Virus record (IMG/VR): IMGVR_UViG_3300024520_000416
Coordinates: 1-27,072 of that record
Strand: one strand, 5' to 3'
From: a virus
DNA: 27,072 bases
Shown here: piece by piece, positions 1-26,336 of the stretch
How positions within the stretch are numbered: the first letter of the stretch is position 1
Layout: every line of letters begins with the position of its first letter
The notes under the pieces: generated by a model
Told to the model about the DNA's origin: nothing
Database searches by the model: none
The model's input: only the letters and a program-made list of their open reading frames with translations
Program-made: the position numbers and the translations under genes

Positions 1-118
1 GGTACGGGTCCGGGTCCGGGTCCGGGTACGGGGCCGGGTACGGGTACGGGTACGGGTACGGGGACGGGTACGGGTACGGGTCCGGGGACGGGGACGGGTG
101 CGGGGACGGGGACGGGGG
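1..118 (+). repeat. Degenerate hexanucleotide tandem repeat, GGNNCG
   Basis: Nineteen consecutive hexamers (1-114) fit GGNNCG, mostly GGTACG, GGTCCG and GGGACG, followed by a decayed unit. The first, second and sixth bases of each unit are constant (GG...G) and so is the fifth (C), while the third and fourth vary. In the coding frame ending at 128 this keeps every second codon as GGG (Gly) and varies the other, so the repeat is best read as a coding microsatellite for a Gly-X tail rather than a telomere or packaging end. The repeat may also be why an assembly would stop here. Confidence 0.85.
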
Positions 119-3980: not shown

Positions 3981-5726
3981 TCAGTAGTTGGTTGGGGGTG
4001 GTGGCCCCTGCTTGTCGATCAATGCCATGCCGAACTGTATCGCGCTCAGTTGGTCGGCCGTTGGGGGGTCGGTCCAATCGGCTCCATCGGTCGTAGTTAT
4101 CACGCAGTCTGCTAGCTCAACGCCCGCCGCCAGAACTGTCCCGTATCGATTCGCCGCCGTTCCGTCGTCGTCCGAGTAGGCGAGGGTCAACACGCACTTG
4201 TAGGGGCTGACGGTCGTATCGGTGTAGTCGCGTTGCACGTAGTAGCGAATCCCATCTGTATGGTAGAACCACTCGCCGAACGTCACGATATCCCACTCAT
4301 TCGCGTCATCGTTCTCGGGGTCGGGTCTCTCGGCAATCGTGCCTGTTGCATTTCCACCCGTTGGAAACCAGCGCTGATAGCTGATATGCGAGCGCGATAC
4401 CGAGCAGTTGGCAGCCGTCTCCCCGTTCAGCGAAGTCATGCAGTTCCACATCGACTTAGAGGTCTTCGGTCTCGGGTCGGCGATACCGTGCGCGGCAAGA
4501 ATCGTCGGCATCAGGTCGCTAGCGTGGAACATCTGATCCGGCAGCATCACCCCATTCTCAACGCCACGCCCCGCACAAACCAGCGCAGATCGGATGCCGC
4601 ATGGGTAGGCGCTCTTCTTGACGAAGCCTGTACTGCACTCTGCGGAATGGATGTTGGGGGCCATCGCCTGCGCGGTCCCGTTGTCGGTCATCGAGCAGAC
4701 CACCGAATCAGACGATGAGCTAATCACCTGGCCATCATGAGTCTCAATGGCATCAATCAGCAAACCCTTCTGCACATCGAGGTATTCGAGCGAGGCTAGC
4801 CATACATCGCCCTCGTCATCTCCAGCAGTGAACGAATAGCCGGGGGGCCAATCGTGCTGGTCTTCCGTCGCCCCGTGGTCGGAGTAGTTACACGAGCCTA
4901 TAGCCCCCGCCCCCGGTCTGTTCGGTGCGTGCGTGATATTGTCCCAAACCAGCAGCACGTGAAAGCCGGTAGTCTGCGCTTCGATGTATTCGATCGCGTC
5001 GTCGTATATCTGCTTGCCGGTGTTCTCTGTGCTGAATGTAATAGCCCCGTCAAGCGTTGAGACGGGGCCGTAGTTGTGCCCCTTGCAATCGTCCCAAACA
5101 TTGACGGAGCCCGGCAGAACTCCCTGCGTGTAGTCGATGTTCCACGGGTTGTCGTCGTTGCCGAGCATCACGATGTTGGCCGTAGTGAAGCCAAGCTGTT
5201 TGATGAATGCGACTCCACTAGCAGGGTTGCTTATTTGGTCCTGCGACATATGGACCTTGCCGGCAAAGTACGTGCTCTTGCCGTTTGCCTCTAGCGTCCT
5301 CGGCAGTGTCGAGATGGCGGGGTTAGCAGACCAGTATGAGTAGTCATGGTCTGCGCGCCGCCCCGCCCCATACATATGATTGTAGTTGCCGACATCGAGC
5401 CCTGAGATGATCGACCACCGAGTAGGAGTACAAACCTGCGAGACCGTCATCCCGCTAACGACCATCCCCGCGTCTACAATGCGCGTCAGGTTTGGGGTAT
5501 CGACTCCGGTGTTCGGCGCAACGGGAGTAGCGGGGTCGGACGCATTGGCGAATAGTTCCTCCCCGACATCGTGCAACCCCTGAAAGTTCAAGGAGCTAAC
5601 GTCATCGTGCATCATGAGCACAAAGAAGCACGGCTTAGCCACGCAGCTAGGGGTAACGTCGGAAGCGTGCGCAGGCGCAGCCCATGCGGCTAGGAGCATC
5701 ACAGCTAGAGCAGTCGCACGATTCAC
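3981..5726 (-). CDS. Secreted sulfatase (alkaline-phosphatase superfamily)
   Basis: A 581-residue, full-length type I sulfatase that hydrolyses sulfate esters. Visible motifs: Sec signal peptide (1-22, cleaving near AHASD); metal-site D41-D42; signature C99-T-P-T-R103 followed by SIISG, where the Cys is converted to formylglycine; G-K157-V-H159, matching the family's GKWH block; H266 in THAP; D348-N349-G metal ligands; and HASDLMPTILAAHGI (401-415), the family's conserved C-terminal helix. It has many Cys, as expected for an extracytoplasmic protein. Start GTG 5726 has AGGAG overlapping the preceding stop. It sits in the late operon between a secreted beta-rich protein and the lysis candidates. 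Activity requires a host formylglycine-generating enzyme or anSME, none being encoded here. The substrate is unknown; sulfated polysaccharide is the natural guess. Confidence 0.9.
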   Translation of the reverse strand: MNRATALAVMLLAAWAAPAHASDVTPSCVAKPCFFVLMMHDDVSSLNFQGLHDVGEELFANASDPATPVAPNTGVDTPNLTRIVDAGMVVSGMTVSQVCTPTRWSIISGLDVGNYNHMYGAGRRADHDYSYWSANPAISTLPRTLEANGKSTYFAGKVHMSQDQISNPASGVAFIKQLGFTTANIVMLGNDDNPWNIDYTQGVLPGSVNVWDDCKGHNYGPVSTLDGAITFSTENTGKQIYDDAIEYIEAQTTGFHVLLVWDNITHAPNRPGAGAIGSCNYSDHGATEDQHDWPPGYSFTAGDDEGDVWLASLEYLDVQKGLLIDAIETHDGQVISSSSDSVVCSMTDNGTAQAMAPNIHSAECSTGFVKKSAYPCGIRSALVCAGRGVENGVMLPDQMFHASDLMPTILAAHGIADPRPKTSKSMWNCMTSLNGETAANCSVSRSHISYQRWFPTGGNATGTIAERPDPENDDANEWDIVTFGEWFYHTDGIRYYVQRDYTDTTVSPYKCVLTLAYSDDDGTAANRYGTVLAAGVELADCVITTTDGADWTDPPTADQLSAIQFGMALIDKQGPPPPTNY

Positions 5727-23451: not shown

Positions 23452-25716
23452 TTAGACAACTCCTTGCGAGAGCGGGTCATAGTCGAGACCAGTCATGCGC
23501 GGAAACTTGTTCATAGGCTCCGCAGTGCGAGCCATGCGCTTAGCCATCACGCACATGCGGGTAGCTGACATGAGGTCGTCGTCCTCTTTCACAACTCGCC
23601 CGTCTTTACGGTGATATGCGTCGAACTCGTTGAACCATGCCTCTAGATGGTGGAACACTTTGAGCCGACCCGAGTTCATGCGCTCGAGCATCTCCATGAG
23701 TCCAGCCTCGAAGCCATGCCCGCCATCGTCAAACGTCGCATGTTCCCGCAGCATCCGAACACCCTGCCGCCGATACAACTCCGCTTCGGTCTGCTGGCTA
23801 TCACGGTCGCCGATACGGTTCCCGTCGTGCGGCCACGCCCAAGGCATCCCCTTGTTCCACTCGCGGATTTCAACGGACATCTGTGAGGGTGTCTGCTCGC
23901 GTGCTCGGTACGCGTGAGTCACATAGATGCAATCGCTATCCCTATCCCACGCTGTAGCCACGCAGCCCGTAGGGTGGTCCCATCCGAAGTCGATACCGCC
24001 GAGCAAAGGCCAATGGTCGGGGATCTCGAACGGCTTCACCGATACAGACTCGATCGTAACGGGGAAGACGCGACCACTACCGCGCATCGGGATGCCGCGC
24101 ATCCGCGCCTCGCGTTCATGCGGAGGATAGGACGCGAGGATTGTTTCCTTCTCGTTCTCGGTGTAGTGCCCGACATCATCGAGCGTCATCATCGTGAGGG
24201 AACGGTCCATCGTCGTCGGATGCGGATAGAACATCTTGACCGTCTTGGTCATGCCGAGGAGCGGCGTCAGGGTCATGAGCATGATCCCGTTACGCGCATT
24301 CAGCCGAGTGAGCCCCTCGGTGTAGTGCTTCGCCGGTGGTTCCTCATCGCACCATATACCGTTGAGAGACTCACCTGCCCATCGGTCGAGCTGCTGCTCG
24401 TACGACTTGAAGCCGATATAGGACTCCCCGCCGGACTTGTGCTTGATGAACACCTGCGCGACGGCATTCGCAATCGTGCGAGCCATCTTGATCTCACTTA
24501 TCGCGTTCTTCGGGATTGCTCCGGTTCCGTAGTTGGTCCCCTCACCAAGTAGAAGCCTCTGCACGGTATCGCGAGTTCCCTCAGCGGATGTGCCGGCAAC
24601 CCAGAAGCGGACGGGTCCGTCAAACCGCCGACCTTCCCACCAGTCTGGGTAGCGGCCGGTACAATGGAAGGCGACTTCCATTGCGGCGGAGTACGTGTTG
24701 TGATGCACGAGCCCGGCAAGCACGTAGTTATGCGGACCGGGAACTGTGAAGTCGTATACATCATGGACGCCGATTGGCTTTATGTGTACAATCTTATTTC
24801 CGCTAACCGAGAGAGGGGAGAGACATGCCTGCGAAGATTCACTTGAACGAGACTGACCTGCGTCATGCGATCGAAGTTGAGAAGCTGACGCAATCGGCGG
24901 CCGCCAAGCTGTTCGGCTGCTCTGAGGATACGGTGCGCCATCGGTGCAAGGAGTTGGGGGTGCAAACGCAAAGGACCGGGCCGCGCTCTGGATCTGGTCA
25001 CCCAAATTGGAAAGGAGGTCGGAACACTGACCCCAAAGGCTATGTTTGGATCTACGCGCCTGACCATCCGAATTGCACGATTCACGGAGGGCGCGTCGCT
25101 GAGCACCGGCTTGTGATGGAAGGGGTTCTCGGTCGCCTGCTGGACCGGAGGGAAGTAGTTCACCACAAAGACGGCGACCCAGGGAATAACGATCCCGAGA
25201 ATCTGCAAGTGTTCCGAACGAACGGTGAACACTTGAAGCATGAGCTGACTGGAAATCACGCTCATCGGTACACTCCTGAAGTTCGGGCGAAAATTTCAAA
25301 AGCTCTTCAAAGAGCACATAGCCTTCGGAAGTCAAAATCCGGTGACGGTCAGCACACTCGAACCACCGCCCGTCACTCATCGTGACCCGGTAGCACTCAG
25401 CCGGATCGTCCTTCTTGAACACGGGGCCGGCCATCGCCTTGATGACTTCGCCATCCTTGTACGCGTAGACCTCGAACTGCTCGCCAGACTCGAATAGCTC
25501 CCCTATCGTCTTCCTGCTACCATCGGGCAAATCGATAAAAGTGTTTAAAGTCGCGCACTTACCGGATTGATTGCCAGCGAGTAGAAGCCTCTCACGCTTC
25601 GTTGCCCCGAGGTTGTGGAATTCCTTCTGTTTCGCATACGGCTCATAGGACAGCATCTTGTTCTGCGTGAGTGCTTTCAGGATGCGTGCTGTCTTTTTGA
25701 TCTGGTTTGTACTCAT
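23452..25716 (-). CDS. TerL, terminase large subunit, interrupted by an in-frame intein
   Basis: A 754-codon gene whose product is a 467-residue packaging ATPase/nuclease once the intein (residues 54-340) is removed. The Walker A is split: AGNQSGK ends at residue 53 and the following T is residue 341. Walker B is IWCDEEP (D457-E458-E459), the coupling motif is MTLTP (481-485), and nuclease acidic residues are D576 in GIDFGWDHP and D712-D714 in DDDLMSATR. TerL pumps DNA through the portal and cuts it. It overlaps TerS by 4 nt (ATGA) and abuts the next small gene. Because the P-loop is broken, packaging should depend on protein splicing. The antisense HNH gene lies wholly inside the intein. Confidence 0.9.
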   Translation of the reverse strand: MSTNQIKKTARILKALTQNKMLSYEPYAKQKEFHNLGATKRERLLLAGNQSGKCATLNTFIDLPDGSRKTIGELFESGEQFEVYAYKDGEVIKAMAGPVFKKDDPAECYRVTMSDGRWFECADRHRILTSEGYVLFEELLKFSPELQECTDERDFQSAHASSVHRSFGTLADSRDRYSLGRRLCGELLPSGPAGDREPLPSQAGAQRRALRESCNSDGQARRSKHSLWGQCSDLLSNLGDQIQSAARSFAFAPPTPCTDGAPYPQSSRTAWRPPIASASQLRSHDAGQSRSSESSQACLSPLSVSGNKIVHIKPIGVHDVYDFTVPGPHNYVLAGLVHHNTYSAAMEVAFHCTGRYPDWWEGRRFDGPVRFWVAGTSAEGTRDTVQRLLLGEGTNYGTGAIPKNAISEIKMARTIANAVAQVFIKHKSGGESYIGFKSYEQQLDRWAGESLNGIWCDEEPPAKHYTEGLTRLNARNGIMLMTLTPLLGMTKTVKMFYPHPTTMDRSLTMMTLDDVGHYTENEKETILASYPPHEREARMRGIPMRGSGRVFPVTIESVSVKPFEIPDHWPLLGGIDFGWDHPTGCVATAWDRDSDCIYVTHAYRAREQTPSQMSVEIREWNKGMPWAWPHDGNRIGDRDSQQTEAELYRRQGVRMLREHATFDDGGHGFEAGLMEMLERMNSGRLKVFHHLEAWFNEFDAYHRKDGRVVKEDDDLMSATRMCVMAKRMARTAEPMNKFPRMTGLDYDPLSQGVV
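24764..24822 (+). promoter_or_regulatory. Candidate promoter and ribosome binding site for the antisense HNH gene
   Basis: TGGACG (24764-24769, 4 of 6 to TTGACA) and TACAAT (24787-24792, 5 of 6 to TATAAT) are separated by exactly 17 bp and point toward the HNH gene. GAGAGGGGAGAG at 24811-24822 is a strong Shine-Dalgarno. On the other strand the same bases encode the intein's block F region. Without mapped transcripts this is a sequence-based guess. Confidence 0.45.
24825..25385 (+). CDS. HNH homing endonuclease encoded antisense inside the TerL intein
   Basis: A 186-residue protein opposite to the terminase. An N-terminal helix-turn-helix-like segment (about 19-46, TQSAAAKLFGCSEDTVRHRC) is followed by NWKGGRNTDPKGYVWIY and an HNH core: AEHRLVME (92-99), H113-H114-K-D-G-D, N121-N122-D-P-E-N126-L, and E135-H136. 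A C-terminal YTPEVRAKISKALQRAH (149-165) matches the NUMOD3 DNA-binding motif common in homing nucleases. GAGAGGGGAGAG sits 2 nt before ATG 24825. Its end lies opposite the intein's block B region. It presumably cuts the intein-free TerL P-loop allele to drive homing. First codon positions of the two genes face each other, and the wobble base of each faces the second base of the other. Confidence 0.9.
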   Translation: MPAKIHLNETDLRHAIEVEKLTQSAAAKLFGCSEDTVRHRCKELGVQTQRTGPRSGSGHPNWKGGRNTDPKGYVWIYAPDHPNCTIHGGRVAEHRLVMEGVLGRLLDRREVVHHKDGDPGNNDPENLQVFRTNGEHLKHELTGNHAHRYTPEVRAKISKALQRAHSLRKSKSGDGQHTRTTARHSS

Positions 25717-26336
25717 TGCAGAATCGGCCCCGCGTCCGGCGTCTCGTCCTCATCCGGTTCCTCATCCGATTCGGTCACTAGGGACTCGGTGAACTTCTTG
25801 CGCATGTTCGGGTCGAGGCTGTCGAGCAGTCCGCGCAAGAAGACTTGGATGTCATCGGGGCTCATGCCGTCAATATCCGCGTCGAAGTTCTCATCGTTGC
25901 CGGCTTCAAGGAACGTGCCGCTAGCGCGTCCGAGCAGCTCCAAAGACTTGTTGCAGGCGGCGAAGTCACGCTTGGTCACATCGACTTCGACTTCTACGCC
26001 GTCCTCGCCCTTCTCGTAGGTACGGGCGGGGCGATTGTCTCGGCCGATCACCGCGTTGCCCTTCTTGGCGGCGCGCAGGTTCTCGCGGATGCCCTCGACT
26101 ACTTCGTCTCGAGACACAGCGCCGGCTGTAACAGCCTGATCCTCAATCCGCTTGCGTAGGAAGTCGATGCGCTCGTTCACGCCGGGGCGGTTCTTTACTT
26201 GATACGGCCCTCGACGGTGACAACCGTCATAGCCTGCGGCGACATGCGCGTCTTTCAGGGATTGCCCCTGAGCGACAGCCAACGCAAAGCGCTCGTGCTT
26301 CAGCACCTTCAGCGGGTCTTCACCTGGAATCGGCAT
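25713..26336 (-). CDS. Terminase small subunit
   Basis: A 207-residue protein ending 4 nt into the TerL start (ATGA). The N-terminus has a helix-turn-helix-like DNA-binding motif typical of TerS (KHERFALAVAQGQSLKDAHVAAGYDG). The central region is charged and helical, and the C-terminus is very acidic (TESDEEPDEDETPDAG), as in TerS proteins that engage TerL. It recognises the packaging site and regulates TerL. The HTH is a typical, not diagnostic, match, but the position is decisive. Confidence 0.8.
   Translation of the reverse strand: MPIPGEDPLKVLKHERFALAVAQGQSLKDAHVAAGYDGCHRRGPYQVKNRPGVNERIDFLRKRIEDQAVTAGAVSRDEVVEGIRENLRAAKKGNAVIGRDNRPARTYEKGEDGVEVEVDVTKRDFAACNKSLELLGRASGTFLEAGNDENFDADIDGMSPDDIQVFLRGLLDSLDPNMRKKFTESLVTESDEEPDEDETPDAGPILQ

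What the first reader, a model, noticed from the sequence alone, without database searches (positions are those of the whole stretch)
24697..25557. Intein whose homing endonuclease is encoded antisense to the host gene
The TerL intein has intact N- and C-terminal splicing blocks, but its middle encodes no in-frame nuclease. Instead the opposite strand carries a full HNH/NUMOD3 endonuclease (24825-25385) with its own ribosome binding site. Classical large inteins carry an in-frame endonuclease domain; here the nuclease is separately expressible, runs antisense, and the host frame stays open for about 187 codons across it. I know of no described element with this arrangement, though that is from memory and not a search.
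Basis: partly seen in the sequence, partly recalled or inferred. Interest (0 to 1): 0.93.

Follow-up and report, generated by a model that had tools for sequence, protein, structure and literature searches.

The report
Intein carrying an antisense homing endonuclease
A self-splicing protein insert in a phage's DNA-packaging gene carries, on the opposite DNA strand of the same stretch, a separate gene for the DNA-cutting enzyme that probably spreads it, and at least 74 distinct relatives have this same two-strand layout, which I did not find described before.

Summary
Window 24697-25557(-) is a 287-aa intein in the Walker A motif of TerL. Its middle is antisense to an intact 186-aa HNH gene, 24825-25385(+). 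Scans of IMG/VR, GTDB contigs and phage records gave 74 distinct inteins (90% clusters) with an antisense HNH. All are in the same relative frame, all host frames are open, and none carries the HNH in sense.

Synonymous resampling of the HNH genes predicts 305 stops in the host frame; 0 are seen. The HNH frame is under purifying selection (dN/dS about 0.2), while the host-strand linker drifts (dN/dS >1) and is predicted disordered. Shine-Dalgarno and sigma-70 promoter sequences, two of them perfect TTGACA-18-TATAAT, are enriched just upstream of the HNH start, inside the C-terminal splicing block.

In a sample chosen on the intein N-domain alone, inteins either carry the antisense HNH (59) or are 130-148-aa mini-inteins (12). 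In one TerL family, empty, HNH-bearing and mini alleles interleave; empty and filled alleles reach 96.5% DNA identity.

Best reading: a mobile intein class with an independently expressed antisense homing endonuclease. Splicing, expression and cleavage are inferred. Antisense HEGs are known in group I introns; I found none reported in inteins.

The parts
23452..25716 (-). terL (terminase large subunit) precursor ORF with intein, 754 aa
   Evidence: Pfam Terminase_6N, Terminase_6C, Intein_splicing
25558..25716 (-). N-extein, ends in Walker A ...LLLAGNQSGK
   Evidence: aligned without a gap to the intein-free TerL L082 across the junction
24697..25557 (-). intein, 287 aa, C1 ... H286 N287, +1 Thr
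   Evidence: C1, H72 and N287 invariant in 54-55 family members
25273..25557 (-). N-terminal splicing domain (intein residues 1-95, includes block B His72)
   Evidence: AF2 pLDDT 93-98 for residues 1-90; fold match Ssp/Npu DnaB mini-inteins
24823..25272 (-). host-strand linker (intein residues 96-245): open but unstructured and not conserved
   Evidence: pLDDT about 50; linker-frame dN/dS >1; absent from mini-inteins
24697..24822 (-). C-terminal splicing domain (intein residues 246-287, blocks F and G)
   Evidence: pLDDT 92-98 for residues 250-287; TIGR01443
24825..25385 (+). antisense HNH homing endonuclease gene, 186 aa; its last 37 codons (25273-25385) overlap the N-terminal splicing domain
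   Evidence: AF2 pLDDT 89; top fold match I-HmuI, weak
24815..24820 (+). Shine-Dalgarno-like GGGGAG, 4 nt before ATG
   Evidence: SD enrichment across the family
24764..24792 (+). sigma-70-like promoter TGGACG-17-TACAAT (9 of 12) for the HNH gene, inside the DNA of the C-terminal splicing domain
   Evidence: alone near chance: 1 vs 0.6; family-wide enrichment at this place
23452..24696 (-). C-extein, begins TYSAAM

Best explanation
This is a mobile, cis-splicing intein whose homing endonuclease gene lies on the opposite strand of the intein's own DNA. On the TerL strand, the N- and C-terminal HINT halves plus a disordered linker of about 150 residues are translated as one chain and splice out to restore the Walker A motif. 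On the other strand, the same DNA carries an HNH endonuclease gene with its own start at the C-domain/linker boundary and, in many members, its own ribosome binding site and sigma-70-type promoter. The HNH protein is made separately, cuts intein-free P-loop alleles, and repair copies the element in. Loss of the HNH gene leaves a mini-intein. Shown by sequence: architecture, fixed relative frame, selection to keep the host frame open, purifying selection on the HNH frame, promoter/SD enrichment, empty/HEG+/mini polymorphism, repeated gain or loss. Inferred: splicing, HNH expression, target cleavage and homing, and the advantage (expression uncoupled from the late terL gene).
For: 74 distinct inteins (90% aa clusters) with an antisense HNH, all in one relative frame, none in sense or in frame. 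0 host-frame stops vs 305 expected (55 elements) and 0 vs 103 in 19 further elements found via the intein N-domain. Phe followed by I/M/T/N/K, which forces a host-frame stop, is 0/167 in these HNHs vs 29/127 in free-standing relatives. HNH frame dN 0.27/dS 1.57 vs linker frame 0.47/0.32 vs splicing blocks 0.30/1.40 for window copy L001 vs L002. SD enriched: 24 vs 9.9 expected, null maximum 17. Promoters >=10/12 in 13 of 44 elements within 100 nt upstream of the HNH start vs about 2.3 in the synonymous null, and about 2 elsewhere in these genes. Intein-selected sample: 59 antisense HNH, 12 mini, nothing else among 71 complete. Mini and HEG+ inteins differ chiefly by the insert. TerL family with 39 empty, 29-31 HEG+ and 5 mini alleles; >=12 state changes; empty and HEG+ TerL 96.5% DNA-identical. 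Intein AF2: HINT ordered, linker disordered.
Against: No wet-lab data. The window's own promoter match is weak (9/12). Many members lack a recognisable SD or promoter. The HNH fold match to I-HmuI is weak (E=0.14). No recent transfer between different host genes was seen: inteins in host genes without detectable similarity share under 40% identity. The state counts do not separate gain from loss.
Confidence: 0.88

Rival explanations
1. The antisense HNH ORF is a chance by-product of a functional sense-strand domain in the intein.
For: Antisense open frames are common in GC-rich DNA; the window is 58% GC.
Against: HNH catalytic residues invariant; HNH dN/dS about 0.2 but linker dN/dS >1; linker predicted disordered; relatives exist as free-standing HNH genes; the insert is present only when the HNH is.
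Confidence: 0.01
2. A free-standing HNH gene parasitises mini-inteins secondarily: it inserted into the intein and homes on its own (cutting mini-inteins), the intein being only a safe shelter.
For: Related HNHs are free-standing; mini-inteins exist at the same site.
Against: One fixed relative frame in all 74 and a mostly constant boundary; empty alleles (39) far outnumber mini alleles (5) in the TerL family studied, so intein and HNH mostly come and go together.
Confidence: 0.1
3. The HNH is a decaying remnant: the arrangement is old and inherited vertically, and the enzyme no longer drives mobility.
For: No recent transfer between different host genes seen; some members lack SD or promoter matches.
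Against: No HNH disruption inside an intact long intein; low dN/dS; >=12 empty/intein state changes among close TerL alleles.
Confidence: 0.05
4. The host gene is really split and the intein acts in trans, with the HNH in the spacer as in fractured split-intein loci.
For: Free-standing endonuclease genes are known between split-intein halves (own knowledge of Dassa et al. 2009; paper not held).
Against: Every complete member is one uninterrupted ORF (119+59 loci), with strong selection against stops.
Confidence: 0.01

Closest known systems
Classical large inteins with in-frame homing endonuclease domain (e.g. TerL inteins of mycobacteriophages, PMC5050341; Mic1 TerL, PMC7156551)
   Same: HINT splicing domain, insertion in the TerL ATPase or another P-loop, endonuclease between N- and C-splicing blocks, empty and mini alleles
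   Different: There the endonuclease is part of the intein polypeptide on the host strand; here it is a separate protein from the opposite strand and the host-strand linker is filler
Antisense homing endonuclease genes in nuclear group I introns (Didymium L2066, I-DsqI; PMC9548176)
   Same: Homing endonuclease encoded antisense to the host gene within a self-removing mobile element; that enzyme was shown to be expressed and active
   Different: RNA-level intron in rDNA with a His-Cys enzyme, so no host reading frame must stay open; here protein splicing in phage coding genes, an HNH enzyme and true two-strand coding
ShiLan domain: hidden out-of-frame HNH in phage methylases (PMC11855218)
   Same: HNH homing-type gene inside an insertion that keeps the host frame open
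   Different: Same strand in another frame, no splicing domains, no detectable RBS; here opposite strand, inside an intein, with RBS/promoter signals
Split inteins with free-standing endonuclease genes ('fractured genes', Dassa et al. 2009; from memory, paper not held)
   Same: Endonuclease not part of the intein chain
   Different: Host gene split in two and trans-splicing; here one continuous host ORF

Membership tests
Intein (class 1, HINT) | Cys1, block B His, penultimate His and terminal Asn, +1 Ser/Thr/Cys | tested here: met
   C1, H72, N287 invariant, H286 >=90%; +1 Thr in the window, S/T/C in the family
Intein (class 1, HINT) | HINT fold | tested here: met
   AF2 pLDDT 93-98 in the splicing halves, Foldseek top hits Ssp/Npu DnaB inteins
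Intein (class 1, HINT) | Splices itself out of the precursor | not testable with these tools
   needs expression
Classical homing-endonuclease-containing intein | Endonuclease domain translated in frame with the intein | tested here: not met
   Middle of the sense frame has no Pfam/NCBIfam endonuclease domain and is predicted disordered; HNH is antisense
HNH homing endonuclease | HNH catalytic motif | tested here: met
   HNH_3 E=2e-9; H113, H114, N122 and H136 invariant
HNH homing endonuclease | NUMOD3 or other DNA-binding module | tested here: inconclusive
   No NUMOD3 in Pfam; HTH_23/HTH_28 weak, E 0.003-0.007; helical N-terminus modelled with confidence
HNH homing endonuclease | Cuts the element-free allele at or near the insertion site | not testable with these tools
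   needs protein; empty alleles exist
Split intein with spacer endonuclease | Host gene interrupted into two ORFs | tested here: not met
   One ORF in all complete members
Group I intron with antisense HEG | Self-splicing intron RNA | tested here: not met
   No Rfam match at E<=1 in 24400-25900
ShiLan-type hidden HNH insertion | Same-strand out-of-frame HNH, no splicing domain | tested here: not met
   HNH antisense, splicing domains present; definition

The most novel reading that the evidence does not exclude
A widespread class of phage mobile inteins is a true two-strand overlapping gene system: one strand encodes the splicing protein, the other an autonomous homing endonuclease with its own promoter built into the codons of the conserved C-terminal splicing block. 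Host RNA polymerase could therefore make the nuclease early, before and independently of the late host gene, with antisense transcription also able to dampen that gene.
Probability: 0.5. Interest if true: 0.92.

Novelty: new variant of a known kind. Interest (0 to 1): 0.88.

Why it matters
It shows that an intein can be tied to a nuclease that is not part of its own polypeptide, which changes how mobile inteins should be searched for: the host-strand middle of these inteins matches no known endonuclease domain, so they look like large inteins with an unknown insert. It offers a natural, tractable case of sense/antisense overlapping genes with a clear selection signature, and an unexpected place for a promoter, inside the DNA of a catalytic protein motif. 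Isolated phages carry it (Pectobacterium phage Ymer and relatives), so it can be tested.

Tried and rejected
Chance antisense ORF: rejected by codon resampling, by the Phe-dipeptide test and by the presence of relatives. Group I intron: no Rfam hit. Split intein: every complete member is one ORF. In-frame endonuclease: no domain, disordered model. Free-standing HNH relatives (L021, L224, L235 and others) were checked as possible broken inteins; no intein blocks were found near them and they look intergenic. Mantel comparison of HNH, splicing-domain and extein distances (HNH-splicing r 0.24, HNH-extein 0.43, splicing-extein 0.19) is too noisy to show co-inheritance. A search for high-identity inteins in divergent host genes found none. 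The HNH tree has weak support; a single origin is allowed, not shown. The first state assignment was superseded. An intein-alignment scan with the whole intein failed for lack of conserved stretches. The window intein alone as query found only its own copy.

Full report
WHAT IS THERE. The TerL gene of this virus record (27,072 bases) runs 25716..23452 on the minus strand. Its Walker A motif is interrupted after GNQSGK by a 287-residue intein, window 24697-25557, ending HHN with a +1 Thr. Pfam and NCBIfam recognise the intein N- and C-terminal regions and the terminase. The sense middle has no recognised endonuclease domain. On the plus strand, 24825-25385 encodes a 186-residue protein with an HNH_3 domain and PHROG HNH matches down to E=1e-24. 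It covers intein residues 58-245, so its last 37 codons also overlap the N-terminal splicing domain. No Rfam family matches the region.

A FAMILY, NOT A SINGLETON. A tblastn-confirmed scan of IMG/VR with the HNH protein returned hits of which nearly all of the best about 25 lie antisense inside an intein. A profile scan of IMG/VR and GTDB contigs, classified with intein N- and C-domain HMMs built here, gave 119 HNH hits antisense inside a one-ORF intein, 67 with no intein nearby, 8 partial (several at contig ends), and none in sense or in frame. With a later scan the total is 74 distinct inteins at 90% identity. All are in the same relative frame: HNH codon position 1 faces host position 1, HNH position 3 faces host position 2. 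The 55 first-set members sit at Walker A or Walker-A-like motifs, at two main positions. Hosts tested include TerL proteins (Terminase_6 and Terminase_3), strawberry-notch-type helicases over 2,100 aa and an SNF2-type helicase. An isolated phage, Pectobacterium phage Ymer, carries it in TerL, annotated only as a hypothetical protein; seven sibling records share the region.

BOTH STRANDS ARE USED. If the HNH codons of 55 elements are resampled synonymously with local codon usage, 305 stops are expected in the host frame; 0 are seen, against 364-548 in each of the other non-coding frames. In 19 further elements found through the intein N-domain, 103 are expected and 0 seen. Because of the frame, Phe followed by Ile, Met, Thr, Asn or Lys always makes a host-frame stop: this occurs 0 times in 167 Phe in antisense HNHs, but 29 in 127 in free-standing relatives. 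Caveat: the first set was required to be one ORF, but no broken long intein was found in any scan. Codon comparison of related pairs shows purifying selection on the HNH frame (window copy L001 vs L002 dN 0.27, dS 1.57; L182 vs L193 0.07, 0.40), a linker frame with dN above dS, and purifying selection on the splicing domains in the host frame (0.30, 1.40). So the strand under constraint switches inside the intein. AlphaFold2 models the splicing halves at pLDDT 92-98 and the linker at about 50; the closest folds are Ssp and Npu DnaB inteins. The HNH models well (pLDDT 89), its best but weak fold match being I-HmuI.

EXPRESSION SIGNALS. The HNH start lies about 116-143 nt (mode 128) from the intein's C-terminal end in most members, i.e. 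at the C-domain/linker boundary. SD matches of 5 nt or more occur in 24 members vs 9.9 in shuffles that choose the best start in the same way (maximum 17). Sigma-70 promoters with at least 10 of 12 matches occur in 13 of 44 elements in the 100 nt upstream, vs about 2.3 in shuffles that keep the intein protein and codon usage, and almost nowhere else on either strand of these genes; L010 and L023 have perfect TTGACA-18-TATAAT. The 19-element set gives 3 vs 0.27. Only one of nine mini-inteins reaches even 9 of 12. The window's own site is only 9 of 12. Members are related by descent, so the counts are not fully independent.

MOBILITY. Scans with intein N-domains, blind to the HNH, gave 71 complete inteins: 59 with an antisense HNH (287-396 aa) and 12 mini-inteins of 130-148 aa, with nothing between and no in-frame endonuclease. 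Mini and HEG+ inteins of one TerL are closely similar in their splicing domains and differ chiefly by the insert. Among close relatives of one TerL (L198 group), 39 are empty, 29-31 HEG+ and 5 mini; empty and HEG+ TerL genes can be 96.5% identical in DNA; the TerL tree needs at least 12 changes between empty and intein, 11 forced by well-supported branches. The window's intein has an intein-free relative, L082, aligning without a gap across the junction. Intein-free Klebsiella phage TerLs match Ymer. This is what a homing element looks like, but gains and losses are not separated and no cutting was shown.

HOW IT MOST LIKELY WORKS. The TerL precursor splices out HINT halves plus linker (inferred). 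The HNH is transcribed and translated from the opposite strand (signals shown, expression inferred), cuts the empty P-loop allele (inferred), and repair copies intein plus HNH (inferred from polymorphism). Separate expression would let the nuclease be made before the late terL gene is on (inferred).

WHAT IS KNOWN. Ten literature searches of open-licence papers found no antisense endonuclease gene in an intein. The library lacks most subscription papers, and Dassa et al. 2009 was not held. The nearest relatives are antisense HEGs in group I introns, with I-DsqI shown active (PMC9548176), and the same-strand out-of-frame HNH of the ShiLan domain, which has no splicing domain (PMC11855218). Verdict: a new variant of the mobile intein.

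Noticed in passing
L398:2525-5185(+): A TerL 99% identical to the L198 host lacks the P-loop intein but carries what looks like a conventional intein with an in-frame endonuclease-like region near its C-terminus: the same gene hosts both designs.
   Followed up: partly
L214, L246: The antisense-HNH intein also sits in the Walker A of strawberry-notch-type (AAA_34/Helicase_C_4) ORFs over 2,100 aa, one on a Polaromonas chromosome contig.
   Followed up: partly
window 3981-5726(-): Virus-encoded Sulfatase-family protein (PF00884, E=4.5e-8), 581 aa, near the virion genes.
   Followed up: no
window 1-116: Tandem hexanucleotide repeat (GGTACG, 19 copies) at the contig edge, at the start of an ORF with PD-(D/E)XK similarity.
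   Followed up: no
L021:3884-4429(+), L224, L235: Free-standing HNH genes that group with the antisense-intein HNHs but have no intein around them: possible escapees or ancestors.
   Followed up: partly
L010, L018, L023, L244: Near-perfect or perfect sigma-70 promoters lie on the antisense strand of the DNA that encodes the conserved C-terminal splicing region of the intein.
   Followed up: yes
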